DNA of 64,000 nt. Origin: Clostridia bacterium (GTDB lineage: Bacteria > Bacillota > Peptococcia > DRI-13 > UBA5745). The stretch covers positions 62,001 to 126,000 of the forward strand of contig JAHDMJ010000008.1 in assembly GCA_018436095.1 (NCBI GenBank). The letters are read 5' to 3'. Below the pieces are notes generated by a model. It saw only the letters and a list, made by a program, of their open reading frames with translations. It ran no database searches and was not told the DNA's origin. Positions within the stretch are counted from its first letter, which is position 1, and every line of letters starts with the position of its first letter. A program made the translations under genes and the position numbers. Below are positions 38,589-46,904 of the stretch, in pieces.

Positions 38589-39128
38589 ATGTTAAAAGCT
38601 ACTATTGTTGGCGGGTACAATGCACCCAGCAAAATGCTGCAGCGGAGAATTGGCGGTATTTTAAAAGATATAGCAAGCGTAGATATCTGCCTTTTTGACG
38701 AATTGGATAAAAATGAATCCGATATTTATATTGCCTATTCCCATGGAATTAGATATGAAAAGCTCAGGTCAAAGTTTCGCAGCGAAAATAAAAAGCTTAT
38801 AGCCGCCGAATTGACCCTTTTGCCAATTGGCATTCGCATGCTGAAAGCCATAAAAAAAGGATCTCGGGTTGGGGTTGTGGCAGAGCATTTGCGGTGCGCC
38901 AACTACTTCTTGGGAGAGATCCTGAAAGCAGGCGTACTTGATTATCATTTTTTTGCAGGCAAAATTACCGATATGAAAAGGATGAATGTGGACGTCTTTG
39001 TCATACCGGAAGAATTGCTTGATCTTGCCGACGAAAGCGCTCTGCAGGGAAAAAATGTTTTGCCTATTCCCCGTACGATAACGGCTTCCTGTTATGCCGA
39101 TTTGATTAATGCGGCTATGGAAAATTAA
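38589..39128 (+). CDS. Small protein with possible PrpR-N-like sensor fold
   Basis: A 179-residue soluble protein, not firmly recognised. Alternating beta/alpha pattern: a DIYIAYSHGIRYEKLR segment, KKLIAAELTLLPIGIRMLKA, then RVGVVAEHL and VDVFVIPEEL. The order loosely resembles the N-terminal ligand-sensing domain of PrpR regulators, but no DNA-binding or sigma-54 domain follows, so it would be a stand-alone sensor or an unrelated enzyme. It lies upstream of a transporter and decarboxylase cluster with its own candidate promoter. The ATG follows AGGGGGCGG. Confidence 0.6.
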   Translation: MLKATIVGGYNAPSKMLQRRIGGILKDIASVDICLFDELDKNESDIYIAYSHGIRYEKLRSKFRSENKKLIAAELTLLPIGIRMLKAIKKGSRVGVVAEHLRCANYFLGEILKAGVLDYHFFAGKITDMKRMNVDVFVIPEELLDLADESALQGKNVLPIPRTITASCYADLINAAMEN

Positions 39129-39163
39129 TTGATAATATACTCTTAATATTTTAAATAAGCATA

Positions 39164-39192
39164 TTGCAACGTAATGAGTTTTGTTTTATAAT
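39164..39192 (+). promoter_or_regulatory. Promoter of the hydrolase-TctBAC-UbiD region
   Basis: TTGCAA at 39164-39169, 17-bp spacer, TATAAT at 39187-39192. It would give a leader of about 275 bases before the gene at 39475, containing two terminator-like hairpins. Confidence 0.65.
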
Positions 39193-39251
39193 CAAATTGT
39201 GGTAAAGTTTACAAGAGCCCCTTGGTAAAAAATAATATTTGTTAAAGGCTA

Positions 39252-39291
39252 GTGTGGAGCCTGCATAACGTATTGTTTATGTAGGCTTTTT
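39252..39291 (+). terminator. Leader hairpin 1 (attenuator-like)
   Basis: GTGTGGAGCCTGCATAA (39252-39268) runs into a stem GCCTGCATAA / TTATGTAGGC (one G-U pair) followed by TTTTT. The 17-base start is repeated at 39409 with two changes. Confidence 0.7.
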
Positions 39292-39408
39292 CTATTTTCA
39301 GGCTTCCGTTTTCTACAGTAGCGCTAGGAAATTGGGTTTGCCTGCAAATATGAAGGACAGCGGGGGGAAAAAGACAATTCTATAGCTTTATAGCAGATTT
39401 ATAGGTAA

Positions 39409-39451
39409 GTGTGGAACCTACATAAATAGCTCAATTTATGTAGGCTTTTTT
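39409..39451 (+). terminator. Leader hairpin 2 (attenuator-like)
   Basis: GTGTGGAACCTACATAA (39409-39425) runs into a perfect 11-bp stem CCTACATAAAT / ATTTATGTAGG, then CTTTTTT. It ends only 24 bp before the hydrolase start and 8 bp before its ribosome site, so read-through must be controlled for the genes to be expressed from the 39164 promoter. Confidence 0.75.
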
Positions 39452-39474
39452 ATTTTCCGAAAGGAGATGAAGGA

Positions 39475-40173
39475 ATGAGGCTATGGGAAACCGTTATCAG
39501 TGAAGAGGAGCGCTTGATCTACGAAAAAGCCGGCTATGGAACGCAAAGGGTTTACTTAGGCAAAAAACCGGCTCTTCTAATCATCGATGTGACTCAATCC
39601 TTTACGGGGGGCCCCTCGCCGGAACAAGCGGAATCCTACGCTACCAGTTGCCCGGGGGCTTGGGAGGCAGTAGATGCCATCAGACAACTTCTGTATATCT
39701 GCCGCAGTGCAGGAATAACCATTGTATATACTACCGGAAATAGGGCGCAGGAAAAGTTTTTCGGAGGGGCTACGATAAGGACACGTACACAGAAGGACCT
39801 TAAACCTGAAGGAGACCGGGTACCCATATGTATCATGGCACAGGAAAATGAGCTTGTACTTAAAAAGAATAAAGCCAGCGCCTTTTTTGATACTCCCTTG
39901 GCTACGTATTTTCACAAGGTGGGTATTGACAGCATTTTGGTAACGGGTACTTCTACATCAGGCTGTGTTAGGGCTACGGTAATTGACGCCTTTTCCCATG
40001 GTTTTCATCCGCTGGTGGTGGAAGAGGCTACCTTTGACCGGTCCTCGACCTTACATCTGGTAAATTTGTTTGACATGAACGCCAAATATGCCGACGTGAT
40101 CACTCTGGAACAAGCTGTTGCACTGATTTTTTCGTGGGAAAAGTCCGGGGAGGTGGAAAGAGTGGAGAGATGA
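39475..40173 (+). CDS. Isochorismatase-fold cysteine hydrolase (amidohydrolase)
   Basis: A 232-residue cysteine hydrolase. The catalytic triad is visible: D38 (LLIIDVTQSF), K133 (KNKASAFFDTPL) and C164 (TGTSTSGCVRATVIDA), with the family's TSTSGCVRAT nucleophile loop. The KASAFF segment resembles N-carbamoylsarcosine amidase and maleamate amidohydrolase, so an amide or carbamoyl substrate is likely. It is the first enzyme of the 39.4-46.9 kb cluster and follows the duplicated leader hairpins. Substrate unknown. Confidence 0.85.
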   Translation: MRLWETVISEEERLIYEKAGYGTQRVYLGKKPALLIIDVTQSFTGGPSPEQAESYATSCPGAWEAVDAIRQLLYICRSAGITIVYTTGNRAQEKFFGGATIRTRTQKDLKPEGDRVPICIMAQENELVLKKNKASAFFDTPLATYFHKVGIDSILVTGTSTSGCVRATVIDAFSHGFHPLVVEEATFDRSSTLHLVNLFDMNAKYADVITLEQAVALIFSWEKSGEVERVER

Positions 40174-40205
40174 AACAGTTCAACACTTGTGAAAAGGGAG
40201 GGATA

Positions 40206-40661
40206 ATGATGGAACCGGAACTGAGAAAAAAACTGGAATTAGGGTTTGCTATACTAATTTTTATATTCTTTGCAGCCTTTCTTATCATCGGCATAACTTA
40301 TCCGCCCAGGCCAAAGGAGCTGCCGCTGATGGTCGATATTATCGGGTTATTGCTAACGGGCAGCATAATCTTTTCCGTGATCAAAAAGCCGGCCGCTTCC
40401 TATAAAAAACCGGACCGGCCTATGAATTGGCGGGCTGTCAGCCTGGGCTTTGGCAGCATGCTCCTCTATCTGATTCTTACCTATTTTATCGGCATGACCC
40501 TCTCATCTTTTGTGATTGTGTATGGTTGCGGGCTGGCTTTTGGCGCCAAAAACAAAAAGACGCTGACCATTGTCTCTCTTGCTTCGGTAGTGGTTGTGTA
40601 TCTGCTCTTTGGAATGTTGCTGAAGGTCAGCTTGTACCATGGCATCTTTTTCGGAGGATAA
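40206..40661 (+). CDS. tctB: Tripartite tricarboxylate transporter small subunit TctB
   Basis: A 151-residue membrane protein with four hydrophobic helices (about 12-32, 44-60, 82-104, 110-146), the TctB topology. ATG 40206 or 40209 is favoured by the upstream GGGAGGG; the longer frame to 40134 overlaps the hydrolase gene. It precedes TctA, as in other TTT operons. Confidence 0.8.
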   Translation: MMEPELRKKLELGFAILIFIFFAAFLIIGITYPPRPKELPLMVDIIGLLLTGSIIFSVIKKPAASYKKPDRPMNWRAVSLGFGSMLLYLILTYFIGMTLSSFVIVYGCGLAFGAKNKKTLTIVSLASVVVVYLLFGMLLKVSLYHGIFFGG

Positions 40662-40713
40662 GAAAACATGGTTGATTTATATGAGATGAGAAGAAGAGGA
40701 GGTTATTGCTTAG

Positions 40714-42216
40714 ATGGAATCAGTTGTATTGCAAGGCTTACTTTCATCCCTGGCCCCCACTTCGATAATAGCAGTTTTAGTTGGCGTATTCGTCGGCATT
40801 GCTGTTGGCATTGTGCCGGGGATTGGTGCGGGAGTTGGGCTATCTTTGCTTTTGCCCATCATATTCAACGTCCCGCCGCTGATCGGTCTTATGCTGCTTT
40901 TAGCTCTGTGGGCCTCTGACGGTTATGGCGCTTCTATTTCTTCGATCCTTTTGAACGTGCCCGGGGGAGCCGGAGCTGTGGCTACCTGCTTCGACGGCCA
41001 TCCTATGGCTCAACAGGGTAAAGCCGGTGAAGCAATCGGGATTTCCATGGCCTCCTCCATGCTTGCCGGCATTCTGGGAACCTTCGTCCTAATGCTGGCC
41101 GCTCCTCCCCTGGCGAAGCTGGCCGTAAAGATAGGGCCTGCCGAGTATACTATCATGGCCATATTAGGCATGACTTTGATCGGGGGCATGGCGGGAAAAA
41201 ACAGGATCAAAGGTTTGGTTTCCGCTATTATCGGCCTGATGGTGAGTTTTATCGGTTATGACCTGACCACTGGGTTTGTACGCTATAATTTTGGTTCCGC
41301 CTACTTATTTGACGGCATTGAGTTTGAATTAGTTCTGATTGGTTTCTTTGCCATAGGCGAACTGATGCAAGCCGGTGAAGAGGGGGGAACCGTAGCCGAG
41401 TTTGGCAAGATGACGGGTACCGTTATGGGAGGGTTCAAAGAAGCCCTAAAGCGCCCGATGTCAATTTTACGATCTTCTCTGGTAGGCGTCGTTATGGGCG
41501 TACTGCCCGGAATTGGCATTACCATTTCCAGCATGGCTGCCTATGAAGTAGAGAAGAAATTTTCCAAGACGCCTGAGAAATTTGGCACAGGGATGGTAGA
41601 AGGAATTATCGGGCCGGAAGCGGCCAACAACTCTTGCCAGCCTGCTGCTTTAATTCCTACTCTTACTTTGGGTATTCCCGCAGGAAGCACTTCGGCGGTT
41701 TTTTTGGGAGCCCTGATCATGTATGGACTGACTCCGGGAATGGACCTTTTTACCAATAAAGCTCCTTTGGTTTGGGCAATGATGTGGGGTATTATCGTGG
41801 CCAGTATTGCCTATGTGTTGGTTGGCCTTATTTTTGCCAACTGGTTTGCCAAATTGACTATCCTGCCGATTGAGTATTTGGTTCCCTGTACATTGGTTAC
41901 CTGCTTTATTGGCGCCTTTGTCACGACCAATAGTTTCTACGATCTGGTGGTAGCTTTCCTGTTTGGCCTGATTGGTTATGTCATGGCTGTCCTTAAATAT
42001 CCTCCGGCGCCGGCTATCCTGGGTGTGGTTCTGGGACCTATCCTTGAGAAGAACTATTTCCGGGCTTTACTTTTATCCGACGGCTCCCACAGAATCTTTT
42101 TCAACGGCACTCTGGCAATATGTCTTTGGTGCATACTGGCCCTAATTCTCTTTGCGCCTCTTCTTTTCAAACTATTTAAGAATCGCAAAGAGGCGAAACT
42201 GCTTCGTAATCTCTAG
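40714..42216 (+). CDS. tctA: Tripartite tricarboxylate transporter large subunit TctA
   Basis: A 500-residue integral membrane protein with about 11-12 helices. Conserved TctA features: GIVPGIGAGVGLSLLLPII near residues 30-50, ISSILLNVPGGAGAVATCFD and GHPMAQQGKAGEAIGISM. It forms the channel of a secondary, binding-protein-dependent carboxylate importer. It lies between tctB and the binding protein gene. The ATG is preceded by GAGGAGG. Confidence 0.95.
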   Translation: MESVVLQGLLSSLAPTSIIAVLVGVFVGIAVGIVPGIGAGVGLSLLLPIIFNVPPLIGLMLLLALWASDGYGASISSILLNVPGGAGAVATCFDGHPMAQQGKAGEAIGISMASSMLAGILGTFVLMLAAPPLAKLAVKIGPAEYTIMAILGMTLIGGMAGKNRIKGLVSAIIGLMVSFIGYDLTTGFVRYNFGSAYLFDGIEFELVLIGFFAIGELMQAGEEGGTVAEFGKMTGTVMGGFKEALKRPMSILRSSLVGVVMGVLPGIGITISSMAAYEVEKKFSKTPEKFGTGMVEGIIGPEAANNSCQPAALIPTLTLGIPAGSTSAVFLGALIMYGLTPGMDLFTNKAPLVWAMMWGIIVASIAYVLVGLIFANWFAKLTILPIEYLVPCTLVTCFIGAFVTTNSFYDLVVAFLFGLIGYVMAVLKYPPAPAILGVVLGPILEKNYFRALLLSDGSHRIFFNGTLAICLWCILALILFAPLLFKLFKNRKEAKLLRNL

Positions 42217-42246
42217 TTTTCCCAAATAAGTTAGCTAGGAGGAGAA

Positions 42247-43275
42247 ATGATGAGGAAACACATTTGGCAGAAGGTTTTGGCTATCAGCTTAATTGTCATC
42301 CTGTCTCTAACCCTGGTTGGATGCGGTGATAACAGCGCTAAAAACATCGAAGATTATCCGACAAAGAGCATCACCGTCATGGTTGGATTTAATCCGGGCG
42401 GTGGTGTGGATACAGCCGTAAGGGGAATTCAACCCTATCTTCAAAAATATATCGGTAAGACGGTTCTTGTGGAGAACAAACCAGGCAATCAGGGCCTTAT
42501 CGCTATGAACTACGTAGGCGAGCAAAAGCCTGACGGTTACACCTTGATAGCAACAACCAATGCCATGAGTCTCAATGCTATGATTTTTCCCGAATCCTAT
42601 AAGTTGAAGGCCGCTCCGGAAGAAGCATTGATTCCTATTTATAGCTGGGTTAATGGCGATGGTAACGGTATCTTTGTTTCCCAAGAGTCTGCTATTAAGA
42701 CCTGGGACGACCTGGTTGCCAAGGCCCAAACAGAAGAAGGCATCAAGATTGCAGGATCCGGTATAGGTTCCACCGATCATATTACAGCTATTACTCTCAC
42801 CAAGATCTATGGCGGCAAATGGACCTTCGTACCCATGGATAGCGCCGGTGAAGTAGCTTCCGCTGTATTAGGCGGTCAGGTTGATGCAGGCAGCAGCTCC
42901 CCGGGCGCCGCCAGCCTGGACCCCAGCCGGGTGAACATGCTTGCCGTGACCCTGAAAGAAAGGGCTGAAAAATGGCCTGATGCGCCTACATTCATTGAAC
43001 TGGAAAAACCCGAGCTTTATATCCTGTTTGTGATTGGCCTGATGGCTCCTGCCGGGACGCCCCCCGAAATAATCGCTAAGTTGGAAGAAGCTATGGATCA
43101 AGCCCGCAATGACCAGGCTTTCATTGACTGGGCTGAGAATGCCAAGCAGCCTATCGGTAAGGAGGGCTGGAGAGCTGAGACTTACAAATCTTATTTAACC
43201 GATTACCAAAGCAATATGAAGGCCCTGATCCCCGACATACAAGAGGCCCTTAAAGCTGCCCAGGGCGGGCAATAA
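42247..43275 (+). CDS. tctC: Tripartite tricarboxylate transporter substrate-binding lipoprotein (TctC/Bug)
   Basis: A 342-residue solute-binding protein. A lipoprotein signal peptide ends in LVGC with the acylated cysteine at residue 26. The mature part has Bug-family motifs: PTKSITVMVGFNPGGGVDTA, GNQGLIAMNYV and KPDGYTLIATT. It captures a carboxylate for TctAB; the ligand is unknown but probably the aromatic or heterocyclic acid handled by the downstream UbiD. The ATG follows GGAGGAG. Confidence 0.93.
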   Translation: MMRKHIWQKVLAISLIVILSLTLVGCGDNSAKNIEDYPTKSITVMVGFNPGGGVDTAVRGIQPYLQKYIGKTVLVENKPGNQGLIAMNYVGEQKPDGYTLIATTNAMSLNAMIFPESYKLKAAPEEALIPIYSWVNGDGNGIFVSQESAIKTWDDLVAKAQTEEGIKIAGSGIGSTDHITAITLTKIYGGKWTFVPMDSAGEVASAVLGGQVDAGSSSPGAASLDPSRVNMLAVTLKERAEKWPDAPTFIELEKPELYILFVIGLMAPAGTPPEIIAKLEEAMDQARNDQAFIDWAENAKQPIGKEGWRAETYKSYLTDYQSNMKALIPDIQEALKAAQGGQ

Positions 43276-43327
43276 GCCGGGTGTGTGTGCAATCTCTCAA
43301 GCTAAATATTTGAATCATGGGTTAGTA

Positions 43328-43370
43328 GGGAACCTATAAGAAGCTAAATGCTTTTTTAGGTTCCCTTTTT
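43328..43370 (+). terminator. Hairpin between tctC and ubiD
   Basis: GGGAACCTA (43328-43336) pairs with TAGGTTCCC (43357-43365), followed by TTTTT. It may attenuate transcription into ubiD. Its start, AGTAGGGAACCTATAA, resembles the repeated leader motif at 39409. Confidence 0.75.
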
Positions 43371-43400
43371 AATTTAGCAAAAATGAAAGGAGCTATTAAA

Positions 43401-44813
43401 ATGCCAAGAGATTTAAGAACATTTCTGAAAGAACTGGAAGCAGCCAATGAAATCGTCACTATTAGCAAAGAGGTTGATCCCTTGAAAAATCTGGCCGGCT
43501 TGGCCTGGCAGGGCGAAAATAAGCTCGGCAAAGCTACGTTTTTTACGAACTTAAAGGGTTTCCCCGGATGGAGGGCGGTGAGCTATGCCGACGCCAGCCG
43601 TAAACGGCTTTCTATGGCTGTTGATACTACCCCCCGGGAGTTTATTCCGACAATGAATGAAATGTTGAAAAAAGGTCCTACTAAAAAGCAGTTGGTTGCT
43701 GAGGGCCCCGTACAGGAAGTAGTTAAAATCGGAGCTGAAGCCAGCCTCTATGATTTGCCCATCCACATCATGTCAAACCTTGACGCCGGTCAGTATATGG
43801 GTGGGGCTATGGCGGTAATCAAGGACCCGGAAACGGGGATCCAGAACGTATCTCTTCACCGCCACCAGGTCAAAGGCAAAGACCGTCTCGGTGTTTTGAT
43901 TCATCCCGGCCGCCATATGGATATGATCTATCAAAAATATGAGGCGAAAAATGAAAAAATGCCCATTGCTCTCGTTATCGGACATCATGCTACCTATTAT
44001 TTAACCTGCTGCTGGACCTTCCCCTTCGGAGTGGATGAATTCGAAATGGCCGGAACATTCCTGGGCGAGCCGGTGCGCACGGTGAAATGCAAGACGGTGG
44101 ATCTGGAAGTACCGGCTGATGCGGAAATCATTATTGAGGGATATATGCTGCCTCATGTCCGGGAAGAGGAAGGACCTTTTGCCGAGCATACCGGATACGC
44201 CAGGGCCGGGGCGGGGCTTAACCCGGTCATCGAGATAACGGCCATCACCCACAGGACAGATGCGATCTACTATGCCCTTCAAGGCGGCAAGCCGATCGCT
44301 TCGTCACAGATCCTGGATGGGCTGCCCATGGAAGTTGTTATCTACAATCGGGTTAAAGATGTGGGCGGTTTCGTGGATATCAAAGACGTTGTGGCTATCC
44401 CCTGCGCCGGCGGCAGCCATATTATCGTTGTGCAGATTACGCCGAAAATTCAAGGGGAAGCCAAAGACGTAGCCATGGCTGTTCTTTCCAGCACCTACCT
44501 CCATCCCAAGATTGCCATGGTTGTGGATGATGATATCGATCCCCATGATAACAAAGAACTGATCTGGTCTTTGTCAACCCGGGTCAATCCCGAGAGAGAC
44601 GTATTCATTGTCGGGGGAACCCATGGCCATCATCTTGACGCCTCACTACCCTTGCTTACTCCTCCGGGAACCCATCCCCAAATCCGCAGAGGCTCTAAAA
44701 TGGGTATCGATGCGACGAAGCCGCCCCTGACCGAGCCCGATGCCCGGGATCACTTTACCAGAAGCCATGCAATGGGGTCGGATGTATTTGATATCAATGA
44801 TTTTCTAAAGTAG
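43401..44813 (+). CDS. UbiD-family prenylated-FMN decarboxylase
   Basis: A 470-residue UbiD-family enzyme from ATG 43401, which has AAAGGAG at ideal distance; ATG 43383 is less likely. Motifs: ASLYDLPIHIMSNLDAGQYM, GIQNVSLHRHQV, LIHPGRHMDMIYQKYE and the EEEGPFAEHTGYA segment that carries catalytic acid residues. The family (de)carboxylates aromatic, heteroaromatic or alpha,beta-unsaturated acids using prenylated FMN made by UbiX, encoded next. With a TTT importer and an amidohydrolase, catabolism of an imported acid is more likely than ubiquinone synthesis. Confidence 0.9.
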   Translation: MPRDLRTFLKELEAANEIVTISKEVDPLKNLAGLAWQGENKLGKATFFTNLKGFPGWRAVSYADASRKRLSMAVDTTPREFIPTMNEMLKKGPTKKQLVAEGPVQEVVKIGAEASLYDLPIHIMSNLDAGQYMGGAMAVIKDPETGIQNVSLHRHQVKGKDRLGVLIHPGRHMDMIYQKYEAKNEKMPIALVIGHHATYYLTCCWTFPFGVDEFEMAGTFLGEPVRTVKCKTVDLEVPADAEIIIEGYMLPHVREEEGPFAEHTGYARAGAGLNPVIEITAITHRTDAIYYALQGGKPIASSQILDGLPMEVVIYNRVKDVGGFVDIKDVVAIPCAGGSHIIVVQITPKIQGEAKDVAMAVLSSTYLHPKIAMVVDDDIDPHDNKELIWSLSTRVNPERDVFIVGGTHGHHLDASLPLLTPPGTHPQIRRGSKMGIDATKPPLTEPDARDHFTRSHAMGSDVFDINDFLK

Positions 44814-44830
44814 CCCGCCCTATAGTTTGC

Positions 44831-44865
44831 GGCGTTTATTCCTTAGGGGGTGAACGCCTCTTTTT
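44831..44865 (+). terminator. Hairpin between ubiD and ubiX
   Basis: GGCGTT (44831-44836) and AACGCC (44853-44858) form a short stem followed by TCTTTTT. It could partly terminate the upstream transcript. Confidence 0.6.
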
Positions 44866-44944
44866 ACAATTCAAACAATGGAAGCAGGCCTTATTTGATT
44901 GCCGTAAAGCATATGTTTAGTTGATAGCAAAGAGAGGAAGGAAC

Positions 44945-45496
44945 ATGAGAATTATTGTAGGAATAAGCGGCGCCACCGGCGGGATTTATGGGATAAGGAT
45001 CTTGGAGGAACTGAAAAAACAAGGAGTGGAGACACACCTGGTTATCAGTAAATGGGGCAAGGAAACAATTTTACAGGAGACGAAATATTCTCTGGAGCAG
45101 GTTAAAAGTTTGGCTGAGTTTACTTATGATGAGGACAATCTGGGAGCCCCGATTTCCAGCGGCTCCTTTAAGAACGAAGGTATGATCGTAGCCCCTTGCA
45201 GTATGAAAACCCTGTCGGGTATAGCCAACGGTTATACCGGAGGGCTTTTGATCAGAGCGGCCGATGTGGCAATCAAAGAAAAACGCCGGGTGGTGCTATT
45301 GGCTAGAGAAACCCCCTTAAGCCCGATTCATCTGGAAAATATGCTGAAGCTGGCCCAGATCGGGGTAACAATTATGCCGCCGGTTCCCGCTTTTTACACA
45401 CATCCTCAAACCATTGATGAAATGATTGCCCAAACAACCGGGCGGGTTTTGGATCAATATGGGCTGGAGGCAAGCAATTTAAAAAGGTGGTCATAA
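44945..45496 (+). CDS. ubiX: UbiX-family flavin prenyltransferase
   Basis: It makes the prenylated FMN cofactor for UbiD from FMN and dimethylallyl phosphate. From ATG 44945 (GAGGAAGG upstream) it has 183 residues: GISGATGGIYGIRILEELKK, PISSGSFKNEGMIVAPCSMK, LLIRAADVAIKEKRRVVLLA and ARETPLSPIHLENML, all family signatures. It follows its partner ubiD in the same direction. Confidence 0.94.
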   Translation: MRIIVGISGATGGIYGIRILEELKKQGVETHLVISKWGKETILQETKYSLEQVKSLAEFTYDEDNLGAPISSGSFKNEGMIVAPCSMKTLSGIANGYTGGLLIRAADVAIKEKRRVVLLARETPLSPIHLENMLKLAQIGVTIMPPVPAFYTHPQTIDEMIAQTTGRVLDQYGLEASNLKRWS

Positions 45497-45515
45497 AAGA
45501 CGAGGTGTTGGCGGC

Positions 45516-46904
45516 ATGAAAGGCAACCTGAAAAAAGTGTTGGTTTTCTTTATGCTAATGGGGGTCGTTAATTATTTTCTCATTTTTAAGACCGAGCTGA
45601 GCAGGGAGGCTATTTTAAGCCTTGACGTTTTCTTTTTAGCCGTTTTTTTATGGTCTACGGAGATAATTCATCCGACGTTGACTGCGCTGCTTATTTTTTG
45701 TTTATTGCCTATTTTTAAGATTCTCCCTCTGGAAGATGCATTTATGGTGATGGGAAACTCTATTATCTGGCGGCTCTTAGGGATCTTTGTGATGACAAAA
45801 GGGATGGAGGCTACGGGTTTAGCTCAACGGATCGCTCTCAGGATTCTCAATATGGCTAAAGGGAATCTTTATTATCTTCTCTTAATGATGGAATTGATCA
45901 CCTTCATTTTCGTTTTTCTTGTTCCGGCTGCGGCAGCCCGCACTGCCATATTGGCTTCGGTTTGCCTTGGCTTGGTGCAAAAGCTGGATAACGGCCGGGA
46001 CCATAATTTTGCTAAAGCAGCCTCCATTATCATTGCCGTCACTTCAATGGTGACTTCCAATACAATTATTGTGGGAGCTTCAGCTACGATCTATGCCATA
46101 GGTTACCTGGAAAAGAATTTGCATTACAAAGTGACCTATCTTTCCTGGCTGCAATCGAATTTGCCTCCAAACCTTTTGATCCTTATTGTCATTTATGTTG
46201 TGATAGTGAAGCTTTTTCCTTTTAACGGTAAACTGGAGGGAAAAGAAGAGATACTTAAAGCGGAGTTGCAAGGGTTAGGGCCAATGAGCCCGGCTCAGTG
46301 GAAAATGGTTATTTATTTAGGACTTCTTTTATTTGCTTGGCTGATAGGCTTGGATTATTCCCTGCCGGTAGAATTTATGGCCGGGACGCTGCTTTTTTTA
46401 CCGGGGATTGGTGTGCTGGACCGCAAGGAGTCTTTCAAGGCTTTGGATTGGGAATCAATTATACTCTTTGGCTCAGGCCTGGCTATGGCCGAATCATTGA
46501 ATAAGACTGGCGGAATCAACTACCTGGTACAAAATCTCGGCGGCCTTTCGGGGTTAAATGAGATTACAGCAATTATCGGTATTGTTCTGATAACTGTAGC
46601 CGTAAGGCTGGGGATGGCCAACATGACCGGGGTTGTGGCTACTTTGCTGCCGGTATTTACTTCACTGTCCTTTGCCCTGGGATTTAATCCCGTTTGGGCT
46701 TGTACAGTCTGCATTATGGCCAGCAGCCTGGGCATTCTGGTTCCTTCTCAGTCCATGTCTATGCTTACTACCTATTCCTATGGCTATTATACTTCCAAAG
46801 ATATGTTCAAAACAGGAATTCTGGTAATTCTGGGCTATGGGCTGATCATAATGGCAACGTCCCATTTTTATTGGCCTTATCTGGGGTTGCATGCGTTGCC
46901 GTAA
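45516..46904 (+). CDS. DASS/SLC13-type carboxylate transporter
   Basis: A 462-residue membrane protein with about 11-12 helices (VLVFFMLMGVVNYFLIFKTE first). It shows the divalent anion:sodium symporter style, including SIILFGSGLAMAESLNKTGG and ASSLGILVPSQSMSMLTTYS. It is the second transporter of this cluster, after TctABC, and may export the decarboxylated product or import another carboxylate. It starts 19 bp after ubiX. Confidence 0.82.
   Translation: MKGNLKKVLVFFMLMGVVNYFLIFKTELSREAILSLDVFFLAVFLWSTEIIHPTLTALLIFCLLPIFKILPLEDAFMVMGNSIIWRLLGIFVMTKGMEATGLAQRIALRILNMAKGNLYYLLLMMELITFIFVFLVPAAAARTAILASVCLGLVQKLDNGRDHNFAKAASIIIAVTSMVTSNTIIVGASATIYAIGYLEKNLHYKVTYLSWLQSNLPPNLLILIVIYVVIVKLFPFNGKLEGKEEILKAELQGLGPMSPAQWKMVIYLGLLLFAWLIGLDYSLPVEFMAGTLLFLPGIGVLDRKESFKALDWESIILFGSGLAMAESLNKTGGINYLVQNLGGLSGLNEITAIIGIVLITVAVRLGMANMTGVVATLLPVFTSLSFALGFNPVWACTVCIMASSLGILVPSQSMSMLTTYSYGYYTSKDMFKTGILVILGYGLIIMATSHFYWPYLGLHALP

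What the first reader, a model, noticed from the sequence alone, without database searches (positions are those of the whole stretch)
38589..46904. Possible undescribed acid uptake and prenyl-FMN decarboxylation pathway
A possible sensor protein, an amidase-like isochorismatase-fold hydrolase with intact D38/K133/C164, a TctBAC importer, UbiD, UbiX and a second carboxylate transporter lie in a row on one strand. UbiD enzymes act on aromatic or heteroaromatic acids; here the hydrolase suggests that the imported compound carries or yields an amide or carbamoyl group. TctC and DASS could exchange substrate and product. The combination does not match a pathway I can name.
Basis: partly seen in the sequence, partly recalled or inferred. 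Interest (0 to 1): 0.64.

Follow-up and report, generated by a model that had tools for sequence, protein, structure and literature searches.

The report
Decarboxylase operon with repeated RNA switches
An anaerobic bacterium carries an operon that probably imports an unidentified ring-shaped acid and removes its carboxyl group, and its genes sit behind three copies of an RNA stop signal not in the RNA library searched, which tracks across species with a stand-alone sensor protein of unknown function.

Summary
The eight-gene row is real: sensor-like protein, isochorismatase-fold amidohydrolase, TctB-TctA-TctC importer, UbiD, UbiX and a DASS/CitMHS-type carrier. It is an uncharacterised import-and-decarboxylation operon. 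The UbiD belongs to a distinct subfamily, nearest to HmfF among solved structures but lacking the HmfF specificity residue. The amide idea is weakened: G397 (another family) keeps sensor, TTT importer, UbiD, DASS and UbiX without the hydrolase, and G001 keeps hydrolase-TctBAC without UbiD. The hydrolase is therefore a separable add-on, although L025 and L027 also place it beside the same UbiD type.

The window has three copies (0.03 expected). Ten copies in four genomes all precede TTT/UbiD/hydrolase genes or a sensor-paralogue-molybdenum-hydroxylase-TAXI operon; nine have a terminator. All four genomes found to encode the sensor family have the element; the six same-family genomes tested without it have none. 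The sensor resembles a stand-alone PrpR N-domain without a DNA-binding part. I propose that it controls readthrough of these attenuators when it binds the pathway compound; this is untested. The substrate is unidentified.

The parts
38589..39128 (+). 'sens': 179-aa stand-alone sensor-like protein, PrpR_N/type-I-PBP-like two-lobe fold, no DNA-binding domain
   Evidence: ORF; no Pfam/NCBIfam; AF2 pLDDT 83.2, pTM 0.74 from a 4-row alignment; VIA Z 8.7 over 160-161 residues to 2q5c and 2pju (PrpR sensor domains), tied with ferrochelatase/CbiX-type folds at Z 9; found in 3 of 398 sampled phylum genomes
39246..39292 (+). RNA element copy 1: mini-hairpin AGGC-UAGUGUGGA-GCCU overlapping an intrinsic terminator
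39403..39450 (+). RNA element copy 2: mini-hairpin AGGU-AAGUGUGGA-ACCU overlapping an intrinsic terminator directly before the hydrolase ribosome-binding site
39475..40173 (+). isochorismatase-fold amidohydrolase (N-carbamoylsarcosine amidohydrolase / maleamate amidase-like), D38/K131/C164
   Evidence: PF00857 3e-29; 26st 6.6e-30, 3ot4 2e-24; alignment A1
40206..40661 (+). TctB (likely ATG start; a longer GTG ORF begins at 40134)
   Evidence: PF07331 1.9e-13
40714..42216 (+). TctA permease
   Evidence: PF01970 5e-131
42247..43275 (+). TctC solute-binding lipoprotein
   Evidence: PF03401 7e-33; nearest solved 25hk, Bug27 2qpq and others, no ligand assignment
43319..43371 (+). RNA element copy 3: mini-hairpin GGGU-UAGUAGGGA-ACCU overlapping a strong terminator (MFE about -26 kcal/mol) before UbiD
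43401..44813 (+). UbiD-family prFMN (de)carboxylase of a distinct subfamily (YYALQGG[KR]PI..SQ[IV]LDG motif)
   Evidence: PF01977 2e-62; 6h6v HmfF 3e-65; E-R-E residues intact
44831..44867 (+). terminator-like hairpin between UbiD and UbiX, without the shared motif
44945..45496 (+). UbiX flavin prenyltransferase
   Evidence: PF02441 2e-44, TIGR00421 257 bits against cut-off 108.9
45516..46904 (+). DASS/CitMHS-superfamily carboxylate carrier
   Evidence: PF00939 1e-47, PF03600 7e-31; TIGR00785 below cut-off

Best explanation
This is an inducible catabolic operon of an anaerobic Bacillota bacterium. TctBAC takes up an organic acid. The amidohydrolase can feed the pathway from an amide, ureido or carbamoyl precursor but is not obligatory. 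UbiD, with the prenyl-FMN made by UbiX, decarboxylates a (hetero)aromatic or alpha,beta-unsaturated acid, and the DASS-type carrier moves substrate or product. Expression is held back by repeated RNA attenuators. In the default state each leader folds into an intrinsic terminator. A conserved 17-nt mini-hairpin, whose 3' arm is the 5' arm of that terminator, is the antiterminator. The stand-alone PrpR_N-like sensor, after binding the pathway compound, stabilises the mini-hairpin directly or through a partner, so RNA polymerase reads through. Directly from sequence: gene identities, synteny, the element, its overlap with terminators, and its co-occurrence with the sensor family in the genomes examined. 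Inferred: catabolism rather than biosynthesis, the direction of UbiD, that the terminators are regulated, and that the sensor is the regulator of the RNA. Unknown: the substrate.
For: Gene families. UbiD has the E-R-E residues and groups with a subfamily sharing YYALQGG[KR]PI..SQ[IV]LDG. Synteny: G008 sens-hydrolase-TctBAC-UbiD; L025 AFOR fragment-UbiD-ThDP enzyme-hydrolase-NicX-like-OCD-TctBAC-UbiD-DASS; G397 sens-TctBAC-UbiD-DASS-UbiX; L027 UbiD-hydrolase. RNA element: 3 matches to GGYWAGNNNGGRRCCT in the window against 0.03 expected, 0 of 100 shuffles reaching 3; the whole 3.7-Mb own genome has exactly 3 matches to GGYWAGTNNGGRRCCT, all in this operon, and none to the reversed pattern. It precedes the hydrolase in G008 and G001, TctB and UbiD in G397, and a sens-paralogue/Mo-hydroxylase/TAXI operon in G000, G008 and G001. 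Nine of the ten copies run into a terminator that uses the mini-hairpin's 3' arm. Sensor-element association: G001, whose hydrolase-TctBAC cluster carries the element but has no sensor gene next to it, has a sensor homologue on another contig, and that homologue's own operon also carries the element. Six other same-family genomes (G002-G007) have neither sensor nor element. The sensor model resembles PrpR sensor domains.
Against: No expression, binding or enzyme data exist. The mini-hairpin has little covariation: one pair changed on both sides in one sequence, and 143 of 500 shuffles reach that score. It stands out only against slid partners (100% against at most 57% of cells paired). It is weak alone (about -1 to -3 kcal/mol against terminator folds of about -17 to -27), so it needs a stabiliser that has not been identified. 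The G397 copy before UbiD lacks a clear terminator. The fold comparison of the sensor is tied among several two-lobe Rossmann-like families, and no RNA-binding feature is visible beyond a pI of about 6.8-9. Co-occurrence rests on four genomes, three of one family.
Confidence: 0.5

Rival explanations
1. The RNA element is a ligand-binding riboswitch, or the site of an unlinked RNA-binding protein, and the sensor protein has another role (for example a partner of an unlinked transcription factor).
For: The element is invariant at nine of 17 positions including loop residues; no RNA-binding feature is known for PrpR_N-like folds; in G001 the hydrolase operon carries the element with no sensor gene adjacent.
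Against: The motif seems too small for an aptamer and I saw no conserved block upstream of it. All four genomes found to carry the sensor carry the element, including G001, where the sensor is on another contig.
Confidence: 0.35
2. Linear amide-first pathway: the imported compound is an N-heteroaromatic or cyclic amide/ureido acid; the hydrolase and UbiD act in sequence, as NicF and a decarboxylase would in pyridine-carboxylate degradation.
For: Hydrolase and UbiD are neighbours in G008, L025 and L027 and within about 10 kb in L030, L039, L046, L061, L063 and L088 (often a different UbiD type); L025 adds a remote relative of NicX 2,5-dihydroxypyridine dioxygenase (7cn3, 4.6e-6); the sensor paralogue's operon holds a Mo hydroxylase.
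Against: G397 has UbiD, sensor, DASS and UbiX with no hydrolase in the cluster; G001 has hydrolase-TctBAC with no UbiD nearby; no NicX-like gene is in the window cluster (own genome has only a weak 2e-4 match elsewhere), and the relatives' taxonomy suggests an anaerobe, in which an O2-dependent dioxygenase is unlikely.
Confidence: 0.3
3. Xanthinase-type purine fermentation: hydrolase = 4-ureido-5-imidazolecarboxylate amidohydrolase, UbiD = 4-amino-5-imidazolecarboxylate decarboxylase.
For: The chemistry matches the two enzyme classes; the sensor paralogue adjoins an XDH/4-hydroxybenzoyl-CoA-reductase-like enzyme.
Against: A 2012 genome study (PMC3519856) found no candidate genes, but PMC12507026 states that the gene cluster has since been identified (its ref. 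24, not held), so the slot is probably taken. No deaminase or imidazolonase gene lies in the cluster, and TTT uptake of an acid does not fit purines. PA0254/HudA, another UbiD enzyme, is inhibited by imidazole and does not use imidazole-2-carboxylate (PMC7976604).
Confidence: 0.04
4. Phenolic-acid decarboxylation of the BsdBCD/VdcBCD kind.
For: UbiX scores 272.5 against a VdcB cut-off of 290; UbiD matches the VdcC model over its length.
Against: VdcC score 301 against a cut-off of 650; UbiD is closer to HmfF; the 131-bp UbiD-UbiX gap holds no VdcD-type gene.
Confidence: 0.12

Closest known systems
HmfF (furan-2,5-dicarboxylate decarboxylase, PDB 6h6v) and the hexameric (hetero)aromatic UbiD branch
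   Same: Best sequence match among solved structures over the whole length; the E-R-E residues align
   Different: The HmfF specificity His (H297 in PMC7976604) aligns with Ser308/Gln309 and, by my count, HmfF Arg304 with Met316 (full-ORF numbering); two-residue insertion and the subfamily motif YYALQGGKPIASSQILDG
N-carbamoylsarcosine amidohydrolase (1nba, 26st) and maleamate amidase NicF (3ot4/3uao)
   Same: Fold and catalytic Asp-Lys-Cys
   Different: Well below the NCBIfam cut-offs of named relatives (RutB 43.5 of 378 bits, biuret hydrolase 40.9 of 370); specificity unknown
TTT transporters with Bug-type receptors
   Same: Complete TctB-TctA-TctC set
   Different: No TctC close enough to assign a ligand
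AmiC-AmiR / ANTAR-controlled attenuators (amiE, nasF, eut)
   Same: Small hairpin whose 3' arm overlaps an intrinsic terminator; ligand sensor encoded nearby; in AmiC a PBP-like sensor (AmiC from general knowledge)
   Different: Single mini-hairpin with a 9-nt loop; ANTAR sites have two tandem hairpins with hexaloops carrying A1 and G4 (PMC3369931); no ANTAR gene in the cluster
PrpR N-terminal sensor domain (2pju, 2q5c)
   Same: Similar length and predicted two-lobe fold
   Different: Stand-alone: no AAA+ or HTH part; no Pfam match

Membership tests
UbiD/UbiX prFMN decarboxylase system | UbiD three-domain protein with E-R-E active-site network | tested here: met
UbiD/UbiX prFMN decarboxylase system | Flavin prenyltransferase UbiX encoded nearby | tested here: met
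   TIGR00421 over cut-off
HmfF furan-dicarboxylate decarboxylase | Furan-specific His (H297) | tested here: not met
   Ser/Gln at the aligned positions
VdcBCD/BsdBCD phenolic acid decarboxylase | C subunit over the curated cut-off and a D subunit present | tested here: not met
   301 of 650 bits; no D gene in the operon
N-carbamoylsarcosine/maleamate-type amidohydrolase | Isochorismatase fold with Asp/Lys/Cys triad | tested here: met
   D38/K131/C164
N-carbamoylsarcosine/maleamate-type amidohydrolase | Amidase activity on a named substrate | not testable with these tools
   needs enzyme assay
TTT transporter | TctA, TctB and TctC in one operon | tested here: met
DASS transporter | TIGR00785 curated cut-off | tested here: not met
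   170.2 of 198.6 bits, but PF00939 and PF03600 over cut-off
ANTAR-type attenuator | Two tandem hairpins with A1/G4 hexaloops before the terminator | tested here: not met
   single 9-nt-loop hairpin, no conserved upstream hairpin seen
Known Rfam leader families | Match at gathering score | tested here: not met
   none; best sub-threshold match 23.7 of 59 bits
PrpR_N sensor domain | Fold similarity to 2pju/2q5c | tested here: inconclusive
   Z 8.7, tied with unrelated two-lobe folds

The most novel reading that the evidence does not exclude
A new kind of ligand-controlled transcription attenuation: a stand-alone PrpR_N-like small-molecule sensor protein acts, alone or with a partner, on a conserved 17-nt mini-hairpin that competes with intrinsic terminators, and controls at least two carboxylate/heterocycle catabolic operons in Bacillota.
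Probability: 0.33. Interest if true: 0.78.

Novelty: new variant of a known kind. Interest (0 to 1): 0.58.

Why it matters
The operon gives a defined, testable entry point to an unassigned prFMN decarboxylase subfamily with its importer. The RNA element and the sensor family co-occur in all four genomes found to carry the sensor and could be an undescribed regulatory pair; if confirmed, it would add an RNA-level regulator class for carboxylate catabolism and reveal the substrate through induction.

Tried and rejected
Furan dicarboxylate decarboxylase (HmfF residues absent). Vdc/Bsd phenolic acid type (scores below cut-off). Xanthinase purine pathway (the key paper is not held). T-box-like reading of the loop (UGGN not conserved across copies). 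The 16-mer pattern alone is not specific: in 398 phylum genomes it hit six unrelated places, none followed by a terminator, and the reversed control hit several tens of places; one further hit in G415 lies in coding sequence that looks like ispH (my reading). Search for more sensor homologues in the class of G397 found none. Literature search for UbiD plus isochorismatase plus TTT clusters found no described pathway among the papers listed. Foldseek alone gave no match at E<=0.001 for the sensor.
Full report
OBSERVATION. Domain searches confirm isochorismatase-fold hydrolase, TctB, TctA, TctC, three-domain UbiD, UbiX and a Na_sulph_symp/CitMHS carrier; the first protein matches nothing in Pfam or NCBIfam. 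Intergenic gaps are 19-52 bp within hydrolase-TctBAC and UbiX-carrier, but 346 bp before the hydrolase, 125 bp before UbiD and 131 bp before UbiX. The catalytic Lys of the hydrolase is more likely K131 than K133 by alignment with 26st and 3ot4.

GENOMIC CONTEXT. The own genome (3.7 Mb, 38 contigs) has five UbiD genes, the other four 31-44% identical to this one. Two loci fetched by name match the relatives' contigs in length and identity: a Clostridia MAG (SM1-B15.1) for G008 and a Peptococcaceae MAG (Gx485_bin115) for G001, so the window belongs to a Peptococcaceae-like Bacillota family. G008 keeps sens-hydrolase-TctBAC-UbiD (sens 91, hydrolase 79, TctB 84, TctA 96, TctC 91, UbiD 95% identity), after which the gene content changes and no UbiX or DASS follows. 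G001 keeps hydrolase-TctBAC (56-87%), followed by genes that read as phosphonate uptake and C-P lyase (my reading), with no UbiD nearby. L025 (Bacillota MAG DBS2-4.bin160) has AFOR fragment-UbiD(58%)-ThDP enzyme-hydrolase(56%)-NicX-like protein-OCD/mu-crystallin-TctBAC-UbiD(77%)-DASS, cut by the contig end. L027 (Chloroflexi) has UbiD(62%) directly before the hydrolase (51%). G397, from another family, has sens(58%)-TctB-TctA(38%)-TctC(36%)-UbiD(85%)-DASS(54%)-UbiX(71%) without a hydrolase. Two separable units therefore exist, hydrolase-TctBAC and sens-TTT-UbiD-DASS-UbiX, and the window has both joined over one TTT set.

ENZYME LEVEL. Among solved structures the UbiD is nearest to HmfF (3e-65), then a phenolic acid decarboxylase. 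The Arg in NVSLHR and the Glu residues in EGPFAE align with the E-R-E network. The HmfF specificity His (H297, PMC7976604) is Ser/Gln here, and by my residue count HmfF Arg304 is Met. Relatives in L025, L027, G397, G043 and G008 share YYALQGG[KR]PI..SQ[IV]LDG and EHTG[YL].RAG, absent from the own paralogues, so this is a distinct subfamily of unknown substrate. TctC resembles Bug27 and other receptors at a level that does not allow ligand assignment.

THE RNA ELEMENT. Both long leaders contain intrinsic terminators preceded by the same motif. The three window copies read AGGC-UAGUGUGGA-GCCU (39246), AGGU-AAGUGUGGA-ACCU (39403) and GGGU-UAGUAGGGA-ACCU (43319). The 3' arm of this 4-bp hairpin is the start of the terminator stem, so the two structures exclude each other. 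Pattern GGYWAGNNNGGRRCCT occurs 3 times in the window against 0.03 expected; GGYWAGTNNGGRRCCT occurs exactly 3 times in the own genome, all here, with none for the reversed pattern. One copy precedes the hydrolase in G008 and in G001; G397 has one between sens and TctB and one before UbiD, the latter without an obvious terminator. Further copies (GGUUAGAUAGGGACCU plus terminator) precede an operon of a sensor paralogue, a three-subunit Mo hydroxylase (nearest solved alpha subunit 4-hydroxybenzoyl-CoA reductase 1rm6, but below named-family cut-offs) and a TAXI receptor in G000, G008 and G001. Ten copies in four genomes are thus known, nine with terminators. Rfam has no match at gathering score, and the sub-threshold matches are chance level.

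THE SENSOR. The family is rare: 3 of 398 sampled phylum genomes. All four genomes found with it have the element. G001 carries the element at its hydrolase operon and, on another contig, a sensor homologue whose own operon also has the element. G002-G007 have neither. AlphaFold2 from a 4-row alignment (pLDDT 83) gives a two-lobe Rossmann-like model; PrpR sensor domains of the same length are among the best matches (Z 8.7) but tied with other two-lobe folds. No DNA-binding domain is present. Whether it binds RNA is untested; pI is 6.8-9.0.

MECHANISM. The model I favour is set out in Best explanation. Weak points: little sequence variation in the mini-hairpin, so covariation is not significant against shuffles (143/500; 100% pairing against at most 57% for slid partners), and an antiterminator too weak to win unaided. 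A direct riboswitch or an unlinked RNA-binding protein remains possible.

VERDICT. The operon is a new combination of known parts. The amide inference is weakened, because UbiD, sensor and carriers occur without the hydrolase. The RNA element with its sensor partner is the more surprising feature and is directly testable.

Noticed in passing
L104:6715-12281 (own genome C30, about 63714-69280), L136 (G008), L138 (G001): Operon of sensor paralogue, three-subunit Mo hydroxylase (XDH/4-hydroxybenzoyl-CoA reductase-like) and TAXI TRAP receptor, each preceded by the same RNA element and terminator.
   Followed up: partly
L025:1684-6274: Between the two UbiD genes of a Bacillota MAG lie a ThDP enzyme, a remote NicX (2,5-dihydroxypyridine dioxygenase)-like protein without Pfam match and an ornithine cyclodeaminase-family protein; G008 has three such NicX-like matches elsewhere, one with an internal stop.
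   Followed up: partly
L018:2651-12346: In G001 hydrolase-TctBAC is followed directly by genes that read as phosphonate uptake and C-P lyase genes.
   Followed up: no
own genome C11:17595-19631, C31:36920, C38:257263: Four further UbiD genes, two of them adjacent on C11, and two with a UbiX within about 5 kb; substrates unknown.
   Followed up: no
L113:15934-18513: G397 carries a second UbiX and a second TctB-TctA set upstream of the sensor.
   Followed up: no
window 44831-44867: A terminator-like hairpin without the shared motif lies between UbiD and UbiX.
   Followed up: no
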